Shown here piece after piece: positions 24,581-56,830 of a DNA stretch of 57,616 bases. The first letter of the stretch is position 1, and each line of letters begins with the position of its first letter. Where the stretch lies: contig JACPGE010000052.1 in the NCBI GenBank assembly GCA_016182605.1, positions 1-57,616 on the forward strand, read 5' to 3'. The position numbers and the translations under genes were made by a program. This DNA is from Candidatus Hydrogenedentota bacterium (lineage in GTDB: Bacteria > Hydrogenedentota > Hydrogenedentia > Hydrogenedentales > JAEUWI01). The notes under the pieces are model-generated. The model had not been told where the DNA came from. It made no database searches and saw only the letters and a program-made list of their open reading frames with translations.

Positions 24581-24583
24581 GCC

Positions 24584-24646
24584 CATACGACCCATTCGAC
24601 CTATACGATCTATATGACCTATACGACCCATACGACCCATACGACC
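24584..24646 (+). repeat. Seven tandem 9-bp units (CATACGACC consensus)
   Basis: Units: CATACGACC, CATTCGACC, TATACGATC, TATATGACC, TATACGACC, CATACGACC, CATACGACC. The array fills most of the gap between the TetR gene and the carboxylase gene. Short relatives occur at 23811 and 57177, so it is a dispersed class. It may be inert or may act as spacer or attenuator in the operon leader. Confidence 0.8.
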
Positions 24647-34047: not shown

Positions 34048-34067
34048 TCCCCCCGCCTCCCCTGTCA

Positions 34068-34120
34068 TCTCGAACGAAGTGAGAGATCTCCGTCTTCTCG
34101 AACGAAGTGAGAGATCTCCG
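34068..34120 (+). repeat. Two tandem copies of the TCGAACGAAGTGAGAGATCT repeat
   Basis: Identical units TCTCGAACGAAGTGAGAGAT-CTCCG at 34068-34092 and 34096-34120. A near-identical single copy is at 56803-56830. This is the TGTCAT-TCGA-(G/A)CGAAG(T/C)GAG class of extragenic repeats seen in many phyla. It lies between convergent stop codons (34047 and 34141). Confidence 0.7.
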
Positions 34121-34140
34121 TCCTCCGAGTCCGTCCTGTC

Positions 34141-37894: not shown

Positions 37895-40102
37895 ATGCAG
37901 TCAGTGGGGCATATTCGAAGGATTGCCTTTTTTACCGTGTTCGTGGCAGTCCTGTTTGCCGTCATGCCCAGTTGCCAGCCCCCCGGCACGGGCGACGGCA
38001 ACCTCAAACTCTTGCTAACCGCTGGCTTCTCCGATCCCGGCAAGGCCATCCTTCCCGAGGGCGCCACACCGGTCGCCGATGTGGATGTCCTCCACCTCTA
38101 TGTCACCATCGCTTCCGTCGGGCTGATCGCGGCAGACGGCGTCGTCCCCGTCTTCACCGGCCCTGTCGAGATCGATCTTGTCGGACTCACCGAAGTCTCC
38201 AACCTCATCGACGAGGTCGCCGCCCCGCCCGGCGTCTACACCGGCGTGCGCGTCGCCGTCAGCAGTGCGACCCTCATCCATTCCGCCGCCCCGCGTTTTG
38301 TGCAAAATCTGGCTATCTCCAATGGCGGCGTCTTCAACATCGATCTGGACCTGGAAGTGCTCGCCGCAAGCGATGGCCTGCTCCATATCGACTGGGGCGG
38401 CTTCGGCGCTTTCGCCCTGGACGCCACGTCCTATGCCTTCATTCCCGTTCCCACGGCCTCCCTGCGCACCTCGGCGCCGTCCGTGCGCGTGGAAGGCGTC
38501 ATCGCCGACGTCGACCCCATCGCACAGTCCCTCATCCTCGCCGGCGAAAGCGCCATGTATCTCGTCGATTTCGCCACGGCGGACATCTTCCTTCCCGAAG
38601 ATATGCTCGAAGCCACCGGTACCCCCGATAACCTCGCCCTGCAGGCGCGCGCCGCCGTCTACGCCACCGCCGGACTCACCGGCAATCTCACCGCGGACCG
38701 TATCGAACTGCTCGGCAATGGCGAGGATGCCGGCCTCGTGGATCTCTGCCACATCCATCAGGGTCTCCCCCCCAACGCCTTCACCATCTCCGTGCCCCGC
38801 GCCGCAGCCCAGGACCACCTCGATCATGGCGACTTCATGGGGCCCTGCGACGGCGGAGACCCCTTCACATTCACCTATCTCGCCGGCCCCGGCGGCAGCC
38901 TCACCGGCACAAGCACCCAGATCGTGGTTCCCGGTTCGGACACCTCCGCCGTTACCGCCGTGCCCGATACCGGCTACTTCTTCGTGAAGTGGAGCGACGG
39001 CTCTACGCAAAATCCGCGCATCGACACAAGCACAAACACGGATATCACGGTCACTGCGGAATTCGTCCGCCGTTTCAACCTGACCTATGCGGCCGGCGCC
39101 GGTGGTACCCTCACCGGCAATACGGCACAGTTGGTCGACATTGGAAAAAATGGCGCTGCCGTCACCGCCGTGCCCAATTCCGGCTTCGCCTTTGTCAACT
39201 GGAGCGACGGCTCCACGCAAAATCCGCGCACCGACGCCAATGTGATGGCACACATCAACGTCACCGCAACCTTCATACAGCGCTTCACCCTCGCCTATGC
39301 GGCCGGCGCCAACGGCGCCCTGACCGGCGCCACCGCACAGACCGTCGACAAGGGCGCCAGCGGCTCGCCCGTCGACGCCGTGCCCAACATCGGCTTTGCC
39401 TTCAGCGCCTGGAGCGACGGCTCCACGCAAGACCCGCGCACCGACGCCAATGTGATGGCCAACGTCAACGTCACCGCAACCTTCGTCACGCGGCAATACA
39501 TACTCACGTACACCGCGGGTGAGGGCGGCACCATCACCGGCAACCCCCTGCAATCGATCCCTGCGGGTGCAGACGGCTCGGAAGTGCGCGCCCGGGCGAA
39601 CCAGGGCTTCACCTTTGTGGAATGGAGCGACGGCTCCACCGTCAACCCCCGCAGGGACTTCGATGTGATGGACGATATCACCGTCACCGCCTCCTTCATT
39701 CCCGTCTACACCGTGCGCTACTCCGCCGGCGCCAACGGCGCCCTCCAGGGAACTTCCCCCCAGACCATCGCGCAAGGCGGCGCTTCCACGCCCGTTACGA
39801 TCGTGCCCAACGTGGGTTACGCCTTCGTCCAGTGGAGCGACGGACGGACAATCCCCGCTCCGACACCAATGTACAAGCCGGCATCTCCGTCAGCGCAACC
39901 TACAAACGGCAATACACCCTCACCTACCTCGCCGGCACAGGCGGCGCCATCTCCGGCGCCGCCCTCCAGGTGGTCAACGCCGCCGAAAATGGCTCCCCCG
40001 TCACCGCAGTCCCGAGCGAAGGCTTCGTCTTCTTCCAATGGAGCGACGGCAACACCAGCAATCCCCGCACCGACACCAATGTCAACGCCAACATCACCGT
40101 GA
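37895..40102 (+). CDS. DUF4382/B-repeat lipoprotein, N-terminal part (frameshifted)
   Basis: Starts at ATG 37895 behind GGAGG. Lipoprotein signal with lipobox-like AVMPSCQPPG (Cys about residue 29). DUF4382-type domain (about 40-200: VGLTEVSNLIDEVAAPPGVY, YTGVRVAVSSATLIHSA). From about residue 325, InlB-like B-repeats of roughly 70 residues, each with [F/Y]-x-x-W-S-D-G-x-x-x-N-P-R-x-D and ending V-T-A-x-F. The fifth copy breaks at nucleotide ~39847, and the remaining codons to 40102 are out of frame (proline-rich). The intended frame continues in the next entry; together they would encode about 1,440 residues. Confidence 0.75.
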   Translation: MQSVGHIRRIAFFTVFVAVLFAVMPSCQPPGTGDGNLKLLLTAGFSDPGKAILPEGATPVADVDVLHLYVTIASVGLIAADGVVPVFTGPVEIDLVGLTEVSNLIDEVAAPPGVYTGVRVAVSSATLIHSAAPRFVQNLAISNGGVFNIDLDLEVLAASDGLLHIDWGGFGAFALDATSYAFIPVPTASLRTSAPSVRVEGVIADVDPIAQSLILAGESAMYLVDFATADIFLPEDMLEATGTPDNLALQARAAVYATAGLTGNLTADRIELLGNGEDAGLVDLCHIHQGLPPNAFTISVPRAAAQDHLDHGDFMGPCDGGDPFTFTYLAGPGGSLTGTSTQIVVPGSDTSAVTAVPDTGYFFVKWSDGSTQNPRIDTSTNTDITVTAEFVRRFNLTYAAGAGGTLTGNTAQLVDIGKNGAAVTAVPNSGFAFVNWSDGSTQNPRTDANVMAHINVTATFIQRFTLAYAAGANGALTGATAQTVDKGASGSPVDAVPNIGFAFSAWSDGSTQDPRTDANVMANVNVTATFVTRQYILTYTAGEGGTITGNPLQSIPAGADGSEVRARANQGFTFVEWSDGSTVNPRRDFDVMDDITVTASFIPVYTVRYSAGANGALQGTSPQTIAQGGASTPVTIVPNVGYAFVQWSDGRTIPAPTPMYKPASPSAQPTNGNTPSPTSPAQAAPSPAPPSRWSTPPKMAPPSPQSRAKASSSSNGATATPAIPAPTPMSTPTSP
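39839..39849 (+). repeat. GGAC microsatellite at the frameshift
   Basis: The sequence is GAC-GGAC-GGAC before AAT. All neighbouring repeats read W-S-D-G-x-T-x-N-P-R; inserting one more GGAC here restores exactly that (W-S-D-G-R-T-D-N-P-R). A missing 4-bp unit therefore explains the break. Confidence 0.7.
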
Positions 40103-42213
40103 CGGCCGAGTTCCTCGACCACTTTACGCTCACCTATACCGCCGGCGTAAATGGCGCCATCGACGGAACCTCGCCACAAGCCGTCAGCCCCGGCGCGGAC
40201 GGCGCCCCGGTCACCGCCGTCCCCAACACGGGCTATATTTTCTCCGGATGGAGCGACGGCAACACCGATAACCCACGCACCGACACCAACGTCATGGCCA
40301 ACGTCAACGTAACGGCCAATTTCGCCTCCATGCCCTTCACCCTGCTTTACACGGCGGGACCAGGGGGCGTCATCACGGGAACCGCCGAGCAAACAGTACA
40401 GACCGGAGGCAACGGATCGCAGGTCCGCGCCAAGCCAGATTCGGGTTTTGCCTTCAAGATGTGGAGCGACGGCAGCACCGTGAATCCGCGCACCGACACC
40501 AACGTCACCGCCAACATCGACGTGACCGCCATCTTTGTGCCCCTCTATACCGTGCGCTACATCAGCGGCCCCAATGGCACCCTCCTGGGCGCCTCCCCGC
40601 AGTCCATTCCCGAGGGCGGAAACAGCACCCCGGTCACCATCGTACCCAATCCCGGCTACGCCTTCGTGAAATGGAGCGATGAGCGCACCGACAATCCGCG
40701 CATGGATACCAACATCACCGCCCCGCTTTCCGTCGATGCGATATACAAACGCCAATTCACCCTCACCTACACCGCCGGCGAAAATGGTTCCATCACCGGC
40801 GATTCCCCCCAGATCGTCGATCAAGGCGCCGACGGCACAGCCGTTACCGCCGTGCCCGATGAAAACTTCGCCTTCCTCCGATGGAGTGACGGCGTCTTCC
40901 AGAATCCGCGCACCGACCTCAATCTCCAGGCGGACGTCAACGCGATCGCCATTTTCGTCGACCACTTCACCCTCACCTATCTCGCCGATCCAAACGGTTC
41001 CATCGCCGGTGAAACTCAGCAATCCGTCCTCCCCGGTGCAGACGGAGCCCCGGTGACCGCAGTGCCCAATGATGGACATATCTTCCTCCAATGGAGCGAC
41101 GGCTCCACACAAAACCCCCGGACCGACACCGGCCTAAGCACCAACATCATCGTCACCGCGCAATTCGTCGGCAAGCCCGAGATGATTCCCGTGGCCGAAT
41201 CCACCTTCACCATGGGAAGTGCCGACTTCGGAGATGACCTGCAACATGGCATGGACGACGAACTGCCCCGCCACGAGGTCACCTTGTCCGCCTACGAAAT
41301 CAGCAAGTTTGAAGTGACCAACCAGCAGCTCTGCGACTTCCTGAACGACTACTACGAACGTGGCCTCCTGCGGCGCGCCGCGGGAGCCCCGTGGTCCGGT
41401 CAAATCGAGGGCATTTATGCCGGCGCCACCCCAAAGCGGATCGTCGCCTACAACCTCAAAGAATGCAACGTCACCTTCTCGAACGGAAAAATCATCCCAA
41501 AAACCAAAATCGGTCTACCCGGCGCCACCGTCTACAGCATGGGCAACCATCCCGCCACCAACATCACCTGGTTTGGCGCCGTCCTCTATGCCAATTGGCT
41601 CTCTGAGGCCGAAGGATTGACCCCCGTCTACGAAGAGGTCCTGTGGTCTGCAAACCTCGCCAACGACGGCTATCACCTCCCCACCGAAGCCCAGTGGGAA
41701 CGCGCCGCCGCATGGGATGGCACAAAGCACTGGATCTACAGTCTCACCGCCGACTCCATGAACGACATGAGTGCCAATGTGCGCAGGGATCGCGCCAACT
41801 TCGAAGTCGTCACCGACGATTTCATCAATCCCATCGGCCTGGTACAGGATGGCATCTCCCCCTACACCTCGCCCGTGGGATGGTTCAACGGCCTCAATAT
41901 TTCGCCCAATGGCAACCTCCAGACCGTGGACAGCAAGAGCCCCATCGGCGCCTACGACATGTCCGGCAACGTGATCGAATGGTGCCACGACCGCTATTCC
42001 GCCACCTATTACAGCGCAAGCCCCGCCTTGAACCCCGACGGCCCGCCTTCCGGCATCAGCAATGCCGCACGCGGGGGCGCCTGGGGCCGCACGCGCAACG
42101 CCAGAAACGTCCGCGCGGCCGTGCGCTTCAACTTCGCGCCCGATTTCACGGACGGCATCATCGGCTTCCGCATCGCACGGGGCGGCGGCCTGGAGGGAGA
42201 CGTGGGCGAATAA
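39847..42213 (+). CDS. B-repeat lipoprotein, C-terminal part with FGE-like domain (continuation after frameshift)
   Basis: In the frame shifted by one base, repeats resume at DNPRSDTNVQAGISVSATY and six more follow (WSDGNTSNP, WSDGNTDNP, WSDGSTVNP, WSDERTDNP, WSDGVFQNP, WSDGSTQNP). From about 41180 a formylglycine-generating-enzyme/sulfatase-modifying (DUF323-like) domain begins: FTMGSADFGDDLQHGMDDEL, PRHEVTLSAYEISKFEVTNQ, and YHLPTEAQWERAAAW, GAYDMSGNVIEWCHDRYS, GIIGFRIARGG. The two catalytic cysteines that true FGE carries in its RGGS-x-x-C-x-x-x-x-C segment are replaced (ARGGAWGRTRNARNVR), so this is likely a binding domain and not a modifying enzyme. No independent start is evident. Confidence 0.7.
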   Translation, partial: DNPRSDTNVQAGISVSATYKRQYTLTYLAGTGGAISGAALQVVNAAENGSPVTAVPSEGFVFFQWSDGNTSNPRTDTNVNANITVTAEFLDHFTLTYTAGVNGAIDGTSPQAVSPGADGAPVTAVPNTGYIFSGWSDGNTDNPRTDTNVMANVNVTANFASMPFTLLYTAGPGGVITGTAEQTVQTGGNGSQVRAKPDSGFAFKMWSDGSTVNPRTDTNVTANIDVTAIFVPLYTVRYISGPNGTLLGASPQSIPEGGNSTPVTIVPNPGYAFVKWSDERTDNPRMDTNITAPLSVDAIYKRQFTLTYTAGENGSITGDSPQIVDQGADGTAVTAVPDENFAFLRWSDGVFQNPRTDLNLQADVNAIAIFVDHFTLTYLADPNGSIAGETQQSVLPGADGAPVTAVPNDGHIFLQWSDGSTQNPRTDTGLSTNIIVTAQFVGKPEMIPVAESTFTMGSADFGDDLQHGMDDELPRHEVTLSAYEISKFEVTNQQLCDFLNDYYERGLLRRAAGAPWSGQIEGIYAGATPKRIVAYNLKECNVTFSNGKIIPKTKIGLPGATVYSMGNHPATNITWFGAVLYANWLSEAEGLTPVYEEVLWSANLANDGYHLPTEAQWERAAAWDGTKHWIYSLTADSMNDMSANVRRDRANFEVVTDDFINPIGLVQDGISPYTSPVGWFNGLNISPNGNLQTVDSKSPIGAYDMSGNVIEWCHDRYSATYYSASPALNPDGPPSGISNAARGGAWGRTRNARNVRAAVRFNFAPDFTDGIIGFRIARGGGLEGDVGE

Positions 42214-49950: not shown

Positions 49951-51444
49951 TCAGGACCGTTTCCCGGTCCTCGTACGCGCCAACACGGCACGCCCAGAAT
50001 CCGTGAGGCGGTACTTCTGCAGTCCGCTCGTGGGTTTGTCGGGAATGGTCATTTCTATCAGGCCTGCATTCAAAGCGGGCTGGAGATATTCGAGACGAAA
50101 ATGTTCTCGATCACGTAGTTCCAGAATTCTCATCAAATCGCCTCTGGAGTGCGCTCCCTGAATTCCACCAAGCAAGGCCGCAACTTGTGCGGTGACTTGT
50201 ACTGTATCTTGCGGGGTATCTTGCGGGGTATCTTGCGGGGTATCTTGCGGGGTATCCTGATGGGTATCTTGAGGGGTCGTGTCCGAACTGGAAAGGGGTT
50301 CCGCCAAGCGAATGATGAACCGGAGACCCATCCCGCCCTCGACAATCTCCGGTTCAGGGAGCCCCAGCTTCTCGGCCTCCTCAAACATGCGGCGAACCCC
50401 GCTGCCCCATTGCTCGATCAAGCCCAGTTCCCGGAAGATGCGGCCAATAACACGGTTTCGCAGCTTGGAAACGCCTTGCCGCACATCCTCCAAGGTCAAT
50501 CCGGGCAACAAAATACCCGGATTGTCTATCTCCACCCGGTCATCATAGATGGCCACGCGCAACGGCGCCCCCATCTGGGAATAGTCCGCGTGTACCACCG
50601 CGTTGATCACCGCTTCGCGCACCATCCCCTGCGGGATACTCCACACATCCCGCCGCCGCACCCCGGAGAGATCTGCCCGGCGCATCGCGTGTTTCTTCAC
50701 GAACTCAATGGCCTTCTCGACCGCCACCGGCAGGGGCTCGTGAAATTCTGCATGGTCCAGGATCACGCTCTTGGTCTTCCCTTCGAAGCGTCCGCATTGA
50801 ATCCAGGCATCGGAAAAGTGTGCTTCCCGATCCACGCCAAAGAGCAGCAGGCCGCCTACAGTCGGCACGAGCCGTCCCTGGCTGCGCACGAGCACTTTCA
50901 GATTGGTCAGTTCCTTTTCGCCCAGCGCCCGCTCCTTGCCGAACAGGCCTCTTGCCGTCTCGAGATCCAGCGCCTCCGCATTGAGATCTGCAAGCGGCAA
51001 CTCATCGAAGCCCATGCCCGTGGTGCTCCGCTTCAACTCCTCGATAAGCGCCGAATCCGCCTTCCGGTTCGTGGAACCCAGCCGCACGTAGACCCCATGC
51101 TCCGGGCCCTCCGCCTTCAGCCAGTGCGGGCGGCTTCCACTCGGGTAAACCTCCACCACCAAGAGCGACTTTTCTTCGAAGGGAATCAATTCGACGTTGG
51201 GCACCAGTCGCGGCTCAATGGCGTCCGCGATCAAGCTGCACAGCCGTTCTTCCTCGTCCAGGGGCTTCGCCACTCCCACAACCTGCCTGTTCTTGTCCTC
51301 CACCCCGATCACCAGCAAGCCGCCCGCCGCATTGGCATAGGCCACCAGTGTCTTTAGCATGTTCTTTGTGGAGGAGAGATCACGCTTGAATTCCAGCGTC
51401 TTTCCTTCCGGACGGGCAAGGAGTTCTTGTAGTAACGGCGTCAT
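49951..51444 (-). CDS. Schlafen/AlbA_2-HATPase-type regulator with QDTP repeats
   Basis: 497 residues from ATG 51444 (an in-frame TTG lies two codons earlier). N-terminal AlbA_2/Schlafen domain (EGKTLEFKRDLSSTKN, AYANAAGGLLVIGVEDKN), then a helix-turn-helix/HATPase_c_4-like region (EAVINAVVHADYSQMG, VEIDNPGILLPGLTLEDVRQ, IEQWGSGVRRMFEEA). Between about 393 and 417 a run of Gln-Asp-Thr-Pro/His units forms an acidic linker, then a winged-helix end. Such genes often act as accessory regulators in mobile or defence contexts. Here it follows trmO in convergent orientation. Confidence 0.75.
   Translation of the reverse strand: MTPLLQELLARPEGKTLEFKRDLSSTKNMLKTLVAYANAAGGLLVIGVEDKNRQVVGVAKPLDEEERLCSLIADAIEPRLVPNVELIPFEEKSLLVVEVYPSGSRPHWLKAEGPEHGVYVRLGSTNRKADSALIEELKRSTTGMGFDELPLADLNAEALDLETARGLFGKERALGEKELTNLKVLVRSQGRLVPTVGGLLLFGVDREAHFSDAWIQCGRFEGKTKSVILDHAEFHEPLPVAVEKAIEFVKKHAMRRADLSGVRRRDVWSIPQGMVREAVINAVVHADYSQMGAPLRVAIYDDRVEIDNPGILLPGLTLEDVRQGVSKLRNRVIGRIFRELGLIEQWGSGVRRMFEEAEKLGLPEPEIVEGGMGLRFIIRLAEPLSSSDTTPQDTHQDTPQDTPQDTPQDTPQDTVQVTAQVAALLGGIQGAHSRGDLMRILELRDREHFRLEYLQPALNAGLIEMTIPDKPTSGLQKYRLTDSGRAVLARTRTGKRS
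50200..50271 (-). repeat. 12-bp minisatellite encoding QDTP/QDTH
   Basis: Six tandem 12-bp units (GATACCCCGCAA-type in the coding strand), encoding the QDT(P/H/V) linker of the AlbA_2 gene. Length changes would be in frame, so repeat number could vary without loss of the protein. Confidence 0.65.
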
Positions 51445-51631
51445 CTTCAAGTCCGAGTCCCTCTATGCATTCCTTGCACACCCCCATCGTTATTCCTTCG
51501 CATCGCAAAATACAACGGTTTCGATCCCAACGAGGAGGCCGCCGAATCATGCATTGTTGACCTTGCCGGCGCCGGCGCCGCGTAAAACACCACCCGCGAG
51601 CCCGGACTCCAGCGTTTGGCTTCCCTCCCCC

Positions 51632-56802: not shown

Positions 56803-56830
56803 TGTCATGTCGAACAAAGTGAGAGATCTA
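56803..56830 (+). repeat. Single TGTCATGTCGAACAAAGTGAG-type repeat
   Basis: One copy, GTCGAACAAAGTGAGAGATC, of the class found twice at 34068-34120 (two mismatches). Confidence 0.6.

What the first reader, a model, noticed from the sequence alone, without database searches (positions are those of the whole stretch)
37895..42213. Frameshift in a GGAC microsatellite splits a large B-repeat lipoprotein
The break falls exactly at GAC-GGAC-GGAC; adding one GGAC restores the conserved motif and the whole 1,440-residue frame. This could be phase variation (on/off switch) or an assembly error.
Basis: seen in the sequence. Interest (0 to 1): 0.6.

Follow-up and report, generated by a model that had tools for sequence, protein, structure and literature searches.

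The report
Recently frameshifted repeat-rich lipoprotein gene
A large surface-protein gene of an uncultured environmental bacterium is split by a single four-base length change inside one of its repeats; this looks like an ordinary recent loss-of-function mutation (or a local assembly error), not a purpose-built on/off switch.

Summary
A single gene from 37895 to 42210 is broken at 39839-39849 (GACGGACGGAC). The eleven B-repeat units are 210 or 213 bp apart except across the break, where the spacing is 206 bp. Upstream is a 651-aa exported N-terminal part with five B-repeats. Downstream is a 787-aa part with six more and an FGE-sulfatase-fold domain, open and with no sign of decay. A relative in the same family (G006) has the same architecture in one intact 1259-codon frame.

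The phase-variation reading is not supported. The tract is only 2.75 units. Tracts this long are no commoner in 818 kb of the same genome than a Markov model predicts. The only other identical 11-mer in the genome lies in-frame in rpoC. The intact relative encodes the same motif without a GGAC tract. Both published tetranucleotide thresholds I checked (3 and 5 units) are missed.

It was the only convincing intragenic frameshift in 731 kb of modelled coding sequence, so a generally error-ridden assembly is unlikely. A local error or population variant cannot be excluded without reads. Best reading: a recent one-unit deletion truncating a dispensable lipoprotein in a Hydrogenedentota-type MAG. 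Ordinary.

The parts
37895..40102 (+). Truncated ORF as it stands: 651 native residues, then about 84 out-of-frame Pro/Ser-rich residues to a TGA
37895..37975 (+). Signal peptide with a lipobox-like end (AVMPSC); the start is preceded by a GGAGG Shine-Dalgarno-like sequence
   Evidence: Sequence; strict lipobox pattern not matched here but matched in ortholog L015; Shine-Dalgarno-like sequence
38081..38356 (+). DUF4382-like N-terminal domain (weak, below Pfam cut-off)
   Evidence: PF14321, 22.7 bits against a cut-off of 25, residues 63-154
38858..39847 (+). First five divergent InlB B-repeats (PF18998), the fifth interrupted by the break
   Evidence: spacing
39839..39849 (+). GACGGACGGAC, the place of the frame change; unit spacing across it is 206 bp instead of 210
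39850..42210 (+). Downstream part in the other frame, 787 codons without a stop: six more PF18998 repeats and the FGE-sulfatase-fold domain
41176..42180 (+). FGE-sulfatase (SUMF1-like, PF03781) domain, without the Cys pair that lies in the aligned stretch of true FGEs; conserved family columns largely kept

Best explanation
The locus is one gene for a large exported, probably lipid-anchored protein: signal peptide, DUF4382-like domain, eleven InlB-type B-repeats and a C-terminal FGE/C-lectin-fold domain. A single small deletion has recently put the second half out of frame; most simply it was the loss of one 4-bp unit by strand slippage at a short chance GGAC tandem created by the codons of a conserved repeat motif. 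The product is truncated within the fifth repeat and loses six repeats and the whole C-terminal domain; the downstream part has no ribosome-binding site or signal peptide of its own. Shown: the frame change, its 4-bp size relative to the sibling repeats, the intact relative and the lack of decay. Inferred: that it is a real genomic mutation, that it arose by slippage, and that the gene is dispensable.
For: Only one of ten unit spacings is off-register, by 4 bp. Ortholog L015 in G006 has the same order of parts in one 1259-codon open frame, 43% (N part) and 50% (C part) identical. The downstream 787 codons have no stop and no further frame break; if neutral, less than about 0.7-2% divergence has accrued since the break (under assumed indel/substitution ratios). 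The FGE part departs at 5 of 73 near-invariant columns, within the 0-9 range of 20 relatives. This was the only convincing intragenic frame switch in 731 kb of modelled coding sequence of the same genome; the five other flagged switches are gene boundaries or a hexanucleotide-repeat ambiguity. No in-frame start near the break has a Shine-Dalgarno-like sequence. The gene is patchy: of six same-family genomes only G006 has a close full-length match, and nothing else in 40 kb around it is syntenic, which fits a dispensable gene.
Against: No reads and no second genome of the species were available, so a local assembly or consensus error cannot be separated from a real deletion. The slippage step is inferred from the tandem only. 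A lack of decay is also what an assembly error would give.
Confidence: 0.62

Rival explanations
1. Assembly or consensus error (or a minority strain variant taken into the consensus) at a short tandem inside a long repeat array; the gene is intact in the organism.
For: The contig is from a 130-contig assembly of what is most likely an uncultured organism; the break is at a short tandem within a repetitive gene; the downstream part shows no decay.
Against: No other convincing intragenic frame switch in 731 kb of modelled coding sequence, so indel errors are not common in this assembly. An 11-15 bp tandem is shorter than usual assembly k-mers, and the repeats differ enough in DNA not to collapse (inference).
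Confidence: 0.27
2. Phase variation: the GGAC tract is a hypermutable switch that turns the full-length surface protein on and off.
For: Tetranucleotide slippage in a surface-protein gene is the classical kind of contingency locus; both sides are intact.
Against: 2.75 units only. Tetranucleotide tracts of 11 bp or more number 23 in 818 kb against about 45 in a fifth-order Markov model, and none reaches 15 bp. The identical 11-mer is in rpoC. The 11-mer occurs 2 times in the genome against 4 for its reversed control. The tract is absent in the intact relative. Published cut-offs of 5 units (PMC5953494) or 3 units (PMC2651432) are not met.
Confidence: 0.06
3. Programmed ribosomal frameshifting or transcriptional slippage joins the two frames.
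For: Both frames are well conserved; a -1 shift near the tract would join them.
Against: No X XXY YYZ slippery heptamer and no homopolymer at the site (sequence). Downstream RNA folding is unremarkable (z = -1.4). A -1 shift would still leave the motif one residue short, whereas all 42 other motifs are 10 residues long. No frame break in the relative.
Confidence: 0.02
4. Two real genes: a truncated lipoprotein and a separately translated FGE-domain protein.
For: An ORF of 863 codons starting at ATG 39622 exists.
Against: None of the candidate starts has a Shine-Dalgarno-like sequence, and that start lies inside a repeat of the first gene. The relative is a single frame.
Confidence: 0.03

Closest known systems
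InlB B-repeat / List_Bact repeat surface proteins (PF18998, PF09479)
   Same: Tandem ~70-residue repeats with a W-S-D-G core in an exported protein
   Different: Array of eleven units joined to an FGE-fold domain; broken in the fifth unit in this assembly
SUMF1/FGE-sulfatase-fold proteins (PF03781), as in GldK/PorK, GldJ, Treponema denticola variable protein
   Same: C-terminal fold, with the order of conserved blocks kept
   Different: No Cys where true formylglycine-generating enzymes have their Cys pair, and joined to B-repeats
G006:C30 lipoprotein (L015), same family of bacteria
   Same: Same domain order and motif, 43-50% identity
   Different: Intact in one frame; no GGAC tandem
Simple-sequence contingency loci of Haemophilus and Neisseria (PMC2651432, PMC5953494)
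   Same: 4-bp unit, intragenic, frame-changing, surface protein
   Different: 2.75 units against at least 3 to 5 required; no genome-wide excess of such tracts; tract not conserved

Membership tests
Simple-sequence-repeat phase-variable (contingency) locus | Uninterrupted tetranucleotide tract of at least 3 (permissive) or 5 units | tested here: not met
   11 bp = 2.75 units; cut-offs from PMC2651432 and PMC5953494
Simple-sequence-repeat phase-variable (contingency) locus | Tract over-represented against chance in the genome | tested here: not met
   23 tracts of 11 bp or more in 818 kb against about 45 modelled; 2 against 4 for the 11-mer and its reversed control
Simple-sequence-repeat phase-variable (contingency) locus | Tract present at the same place in relatives, with variable length | tested here: not met
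   Intact G006 ortholog encodes the motif with other codons; only one ortholog was available
Simple-sequence-repeat phase-variable (contingency) locus | Length variation within a population | not testable with these tools
   No reads, no second genome of the species
Pseudogene by recent frameshift | Frame broken relative to intact homologs | tested here: met
Pseudogene by recent frameshift | Further decay (more stops, indels, lost conserved residues); expected only of old pseudogenes | tested here: inconclusive
   None seen: either recent or not real; this is why assembly error stays open
InlB B-repeat protein (PF18998) | Matches above Pfam cut-off | tested here: met
   5 + 6 stretches, 145.8 and 195.6 bits against a cut-off of 23.6
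Formylglycine-generating enzyme | FGE-sulfatase fold profile | tested here: met
   PF03781 126.6 bits against a cut-off of 23.3
Formylglycine-generating enzyme | Catalytic/copper-binding Cys pair near the C terminus | tested here: not met
   Aligned stretch ARGGAWGRTRNARNVRAAVRF has no Cys
Bacterial lipoprotein | Signal peptide with lipobox | tested here: inconclusive
   AVMPSC fails the strict pattern at -2 (Pro); the ortholog's IALTSC passes
Target of a diversity-generating retroelement | Near-identical template repeat elsewhere in the genome | tested here: not met
   Last 194 bp matches only itself in the genome

The most novel reading that the evidence does not exclude
A slow, low-copy GGAC slippage switch acts on a giant B-repeat/FGE-fold lipoprotein in Hydrogenedentota, a phylum in which I recall no described phase variation of this kind.
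Probability: 0.05. Interest if true: 0.45.

Novelty: new member of a known kind. Interest (0 to 1): 0.14.

Why it matters
Mostly as a caution: a frame break at a short tandem within a long repeat gene suggests phase variation, but composition and copy-number controls and the same tract in rpoC argue against it. It also documents a large B-repeat/FGE-fold lipoprotein with patchy presence among close relatives. If reads showed mixed lengths, it would be a first lead to surface-protein switching in this uncultured group.

Tried and rejected
Programmed frameshifting was rejected: no slippery site, unremarkable downstream fold, and the motif would still be one residue short. Separate downstream gene: no usable start. 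DGR target: no template repeat; a search for reverse transcriptases found one with an open frame and one split RT elsewhere in the genome. Frameshift-rich assembly: not seen. Apparent second broken FGE paralog at G000:C26: its 'inside stop' is simply the gene's own end. Searches failed through a frame slip in my coordinates and were repeated. The literature search for Hydrogenedentota with these domains found nothing, and one for frameshift errors in MAGs found nothing useful.

Full report
What is there. The window is a whole contig (C106, 57,616 bp) of a 6.76-Mb, 130-contig, 97.9% complete assembly. The best named relatives found by protein are mostly Candidatus Hydrogenedentota MAGs, so the host is most likely of that phylum (inferred; the window's own record is unnamed). 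At 37895 an ATG preceded by GGAGG opens a frame with a signal peptide and a lipobox-like Cys, a weak DUF4382 match and five divergent InlB B-repeats. From 39850 another frame carries six more B-repeats and an FGE-sulfatase-fold domain to a TAA at 42211-42213.

The frame break is real in the given sequence. A Viterbi parse with a codon model trained on the window, run without being told the position, passes directly from one frame to the other at 39841/39842. A model trained on 818 kb of the same genome does the same. One caveat: the first training set included the two parts of this gene in their own frames, but the second took only long stop-free frames genome-wide. The W-S-D anchors of the repeat array are spaced 210, 210, 213, 210, 206, 210, 213, 210, 210 and 210 bp. 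The only spacing that is not a multiple of three is the one that starts at the GACGGACGGAC tract, and it is four bases short. All 42 intact copies of the motif found in the window and the loci then held are ten residues long.

It was one gene. A same-family genome (G006:C30, L015) has the same order of parts (signal peptide with a proper lipobox, N-terminal domain, B-repeats, FGE domain) in one 1259-codon open frame. Identity is 43% for the upstream part and 50% for the downstream part, and nothing else in 40 kb around it is syntenic. The gene is patchy: the other five same-family genomes examined have no comparable match.

Age of the break. The 787 downstream codons contain no stop and no second frame break. 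Under neutrality and indel/substitution ratios of 0.05 to 0.2, this allows at most about 0.7-2% divergence since the break (a model estimate). The FGE part departs from 5 of 73 near-invariant family columns; 20 relatives depart from 0 to 9. So the break is recent, or not in the organism at all.

Is it a switch? The tract is 11 bp, i.e. 2.75 units. In 818 kb of the same genome, tetranucleotide tracts of 11 bp or more number 23 against about 45 in fifth-order Markov sequence, and none reaches 15 bp. The exact 11-mer occurs twice in the genome, against four times for the reversed control. Its other copy lies in-frame in a gene whose translation I recognise as rpoC (recognised from knowledge of the sequence, not by a profile search), an essential gene that is no candidate for on/off switching. 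The intact relative writes the same D-G-R-T-D-N-P-R motif with other codons and has no GGAC tandem. Published surveys use at least five units (PMC5953494) or, most permissively, three units (PMC2651432). Phase variation is therefore unlikely, although only read data can exclude length variation.

Is it an assembly error? The same frame-switch scan over 731 kb of modelled coding sequence raised six candidates. Five are ordinary gene boundaries or a hexanucleotide array whose frames are ambiguous; the sixth is this one. The scan only sees switches with at least 240 bp of coding signal on each side. Sequencing indels are thus rare in this assembly, which favours a true mutation, but a local error or a minority variant in the consensus remains possible (about one in four by my judgement). 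Elsewhere in the genome a reverse transcriptase on C92 is also split between two frames, so broken genes do occur, there in what looks like a mobile element.

Mechanism. The simplest route is loss of one 4-bp unit by slippage at a short tandem that exists only because the codons of the conserved motif happen to repeat. The product would end about 84 residues later in a Pro/Ser-rich out-of-frame tail, without six repeats and without the FGE-fold domain. No start codon near the break in the downstream frame has a Shine-Dalgarno-like sequence, and no slippery site or strong RNA structure suggests recoding.

The C-terminal domain is not a functional formylglycine-generating enzyme by sequence. Aligned to true FGEs, the stretch that carries their Cys pair has no Cys here. 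It is better regarded as the FGE/C-lectin fold used in lipoproteins such as GldK/PorK. It is not a DGR target by the test made: its last 194 bp has no second copy in the genome.

Verdict. Observation confirmed; phase-variation interpretation not supported; most likely an ordinary, recent frameshift in an accessory surface-protein gene, with assembly error the main rival.

Noticed in passing
window 24582-24646: About seven imperfect copies of a 9-bp unit (CCCATACGA) fill the gap between a TetR-family gene and a carboxyltransferase gene, about 26 bp before the latter's start; a better candidate for length variation than the GGAC tract.
   Followed up: partly
window 34064-34122 and 56805-56829: Copies of TCATCTCGAACGAAGTGAGAGATCT, a dispersed repeat with 36 matches (up to 2 mismatches) in the genome and none for the reversed control.
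   Followed up: partly
window 50204-50277 (gene 49951-51450, - strand): 12-bp repeat encoding a DTPQ-DTPQ linker in a Schlafen/AlbA_2 plus RecG-C-like protein; frame-neutral.
   Followed up: no
L097/L098 (G000:C92:24369-24948): Reverse transcriptase resembling group II intron RTs, split between two frames: a second frame-broken gene in the genome.
   Followed up: partly
G000:C2:174025-174150 (L073): 126-bp perfect TCACCT hexanucleotide array, 21 units, coding for a long EG or KV dipeptide run; the longest simple repeat in the 818 kb examined.
   Followed up: no
L065 1-24 (G000:C2 start): A 24-base homopolymer at the very start of a contig, probably an assembly-end artefact.
   Followed up: no
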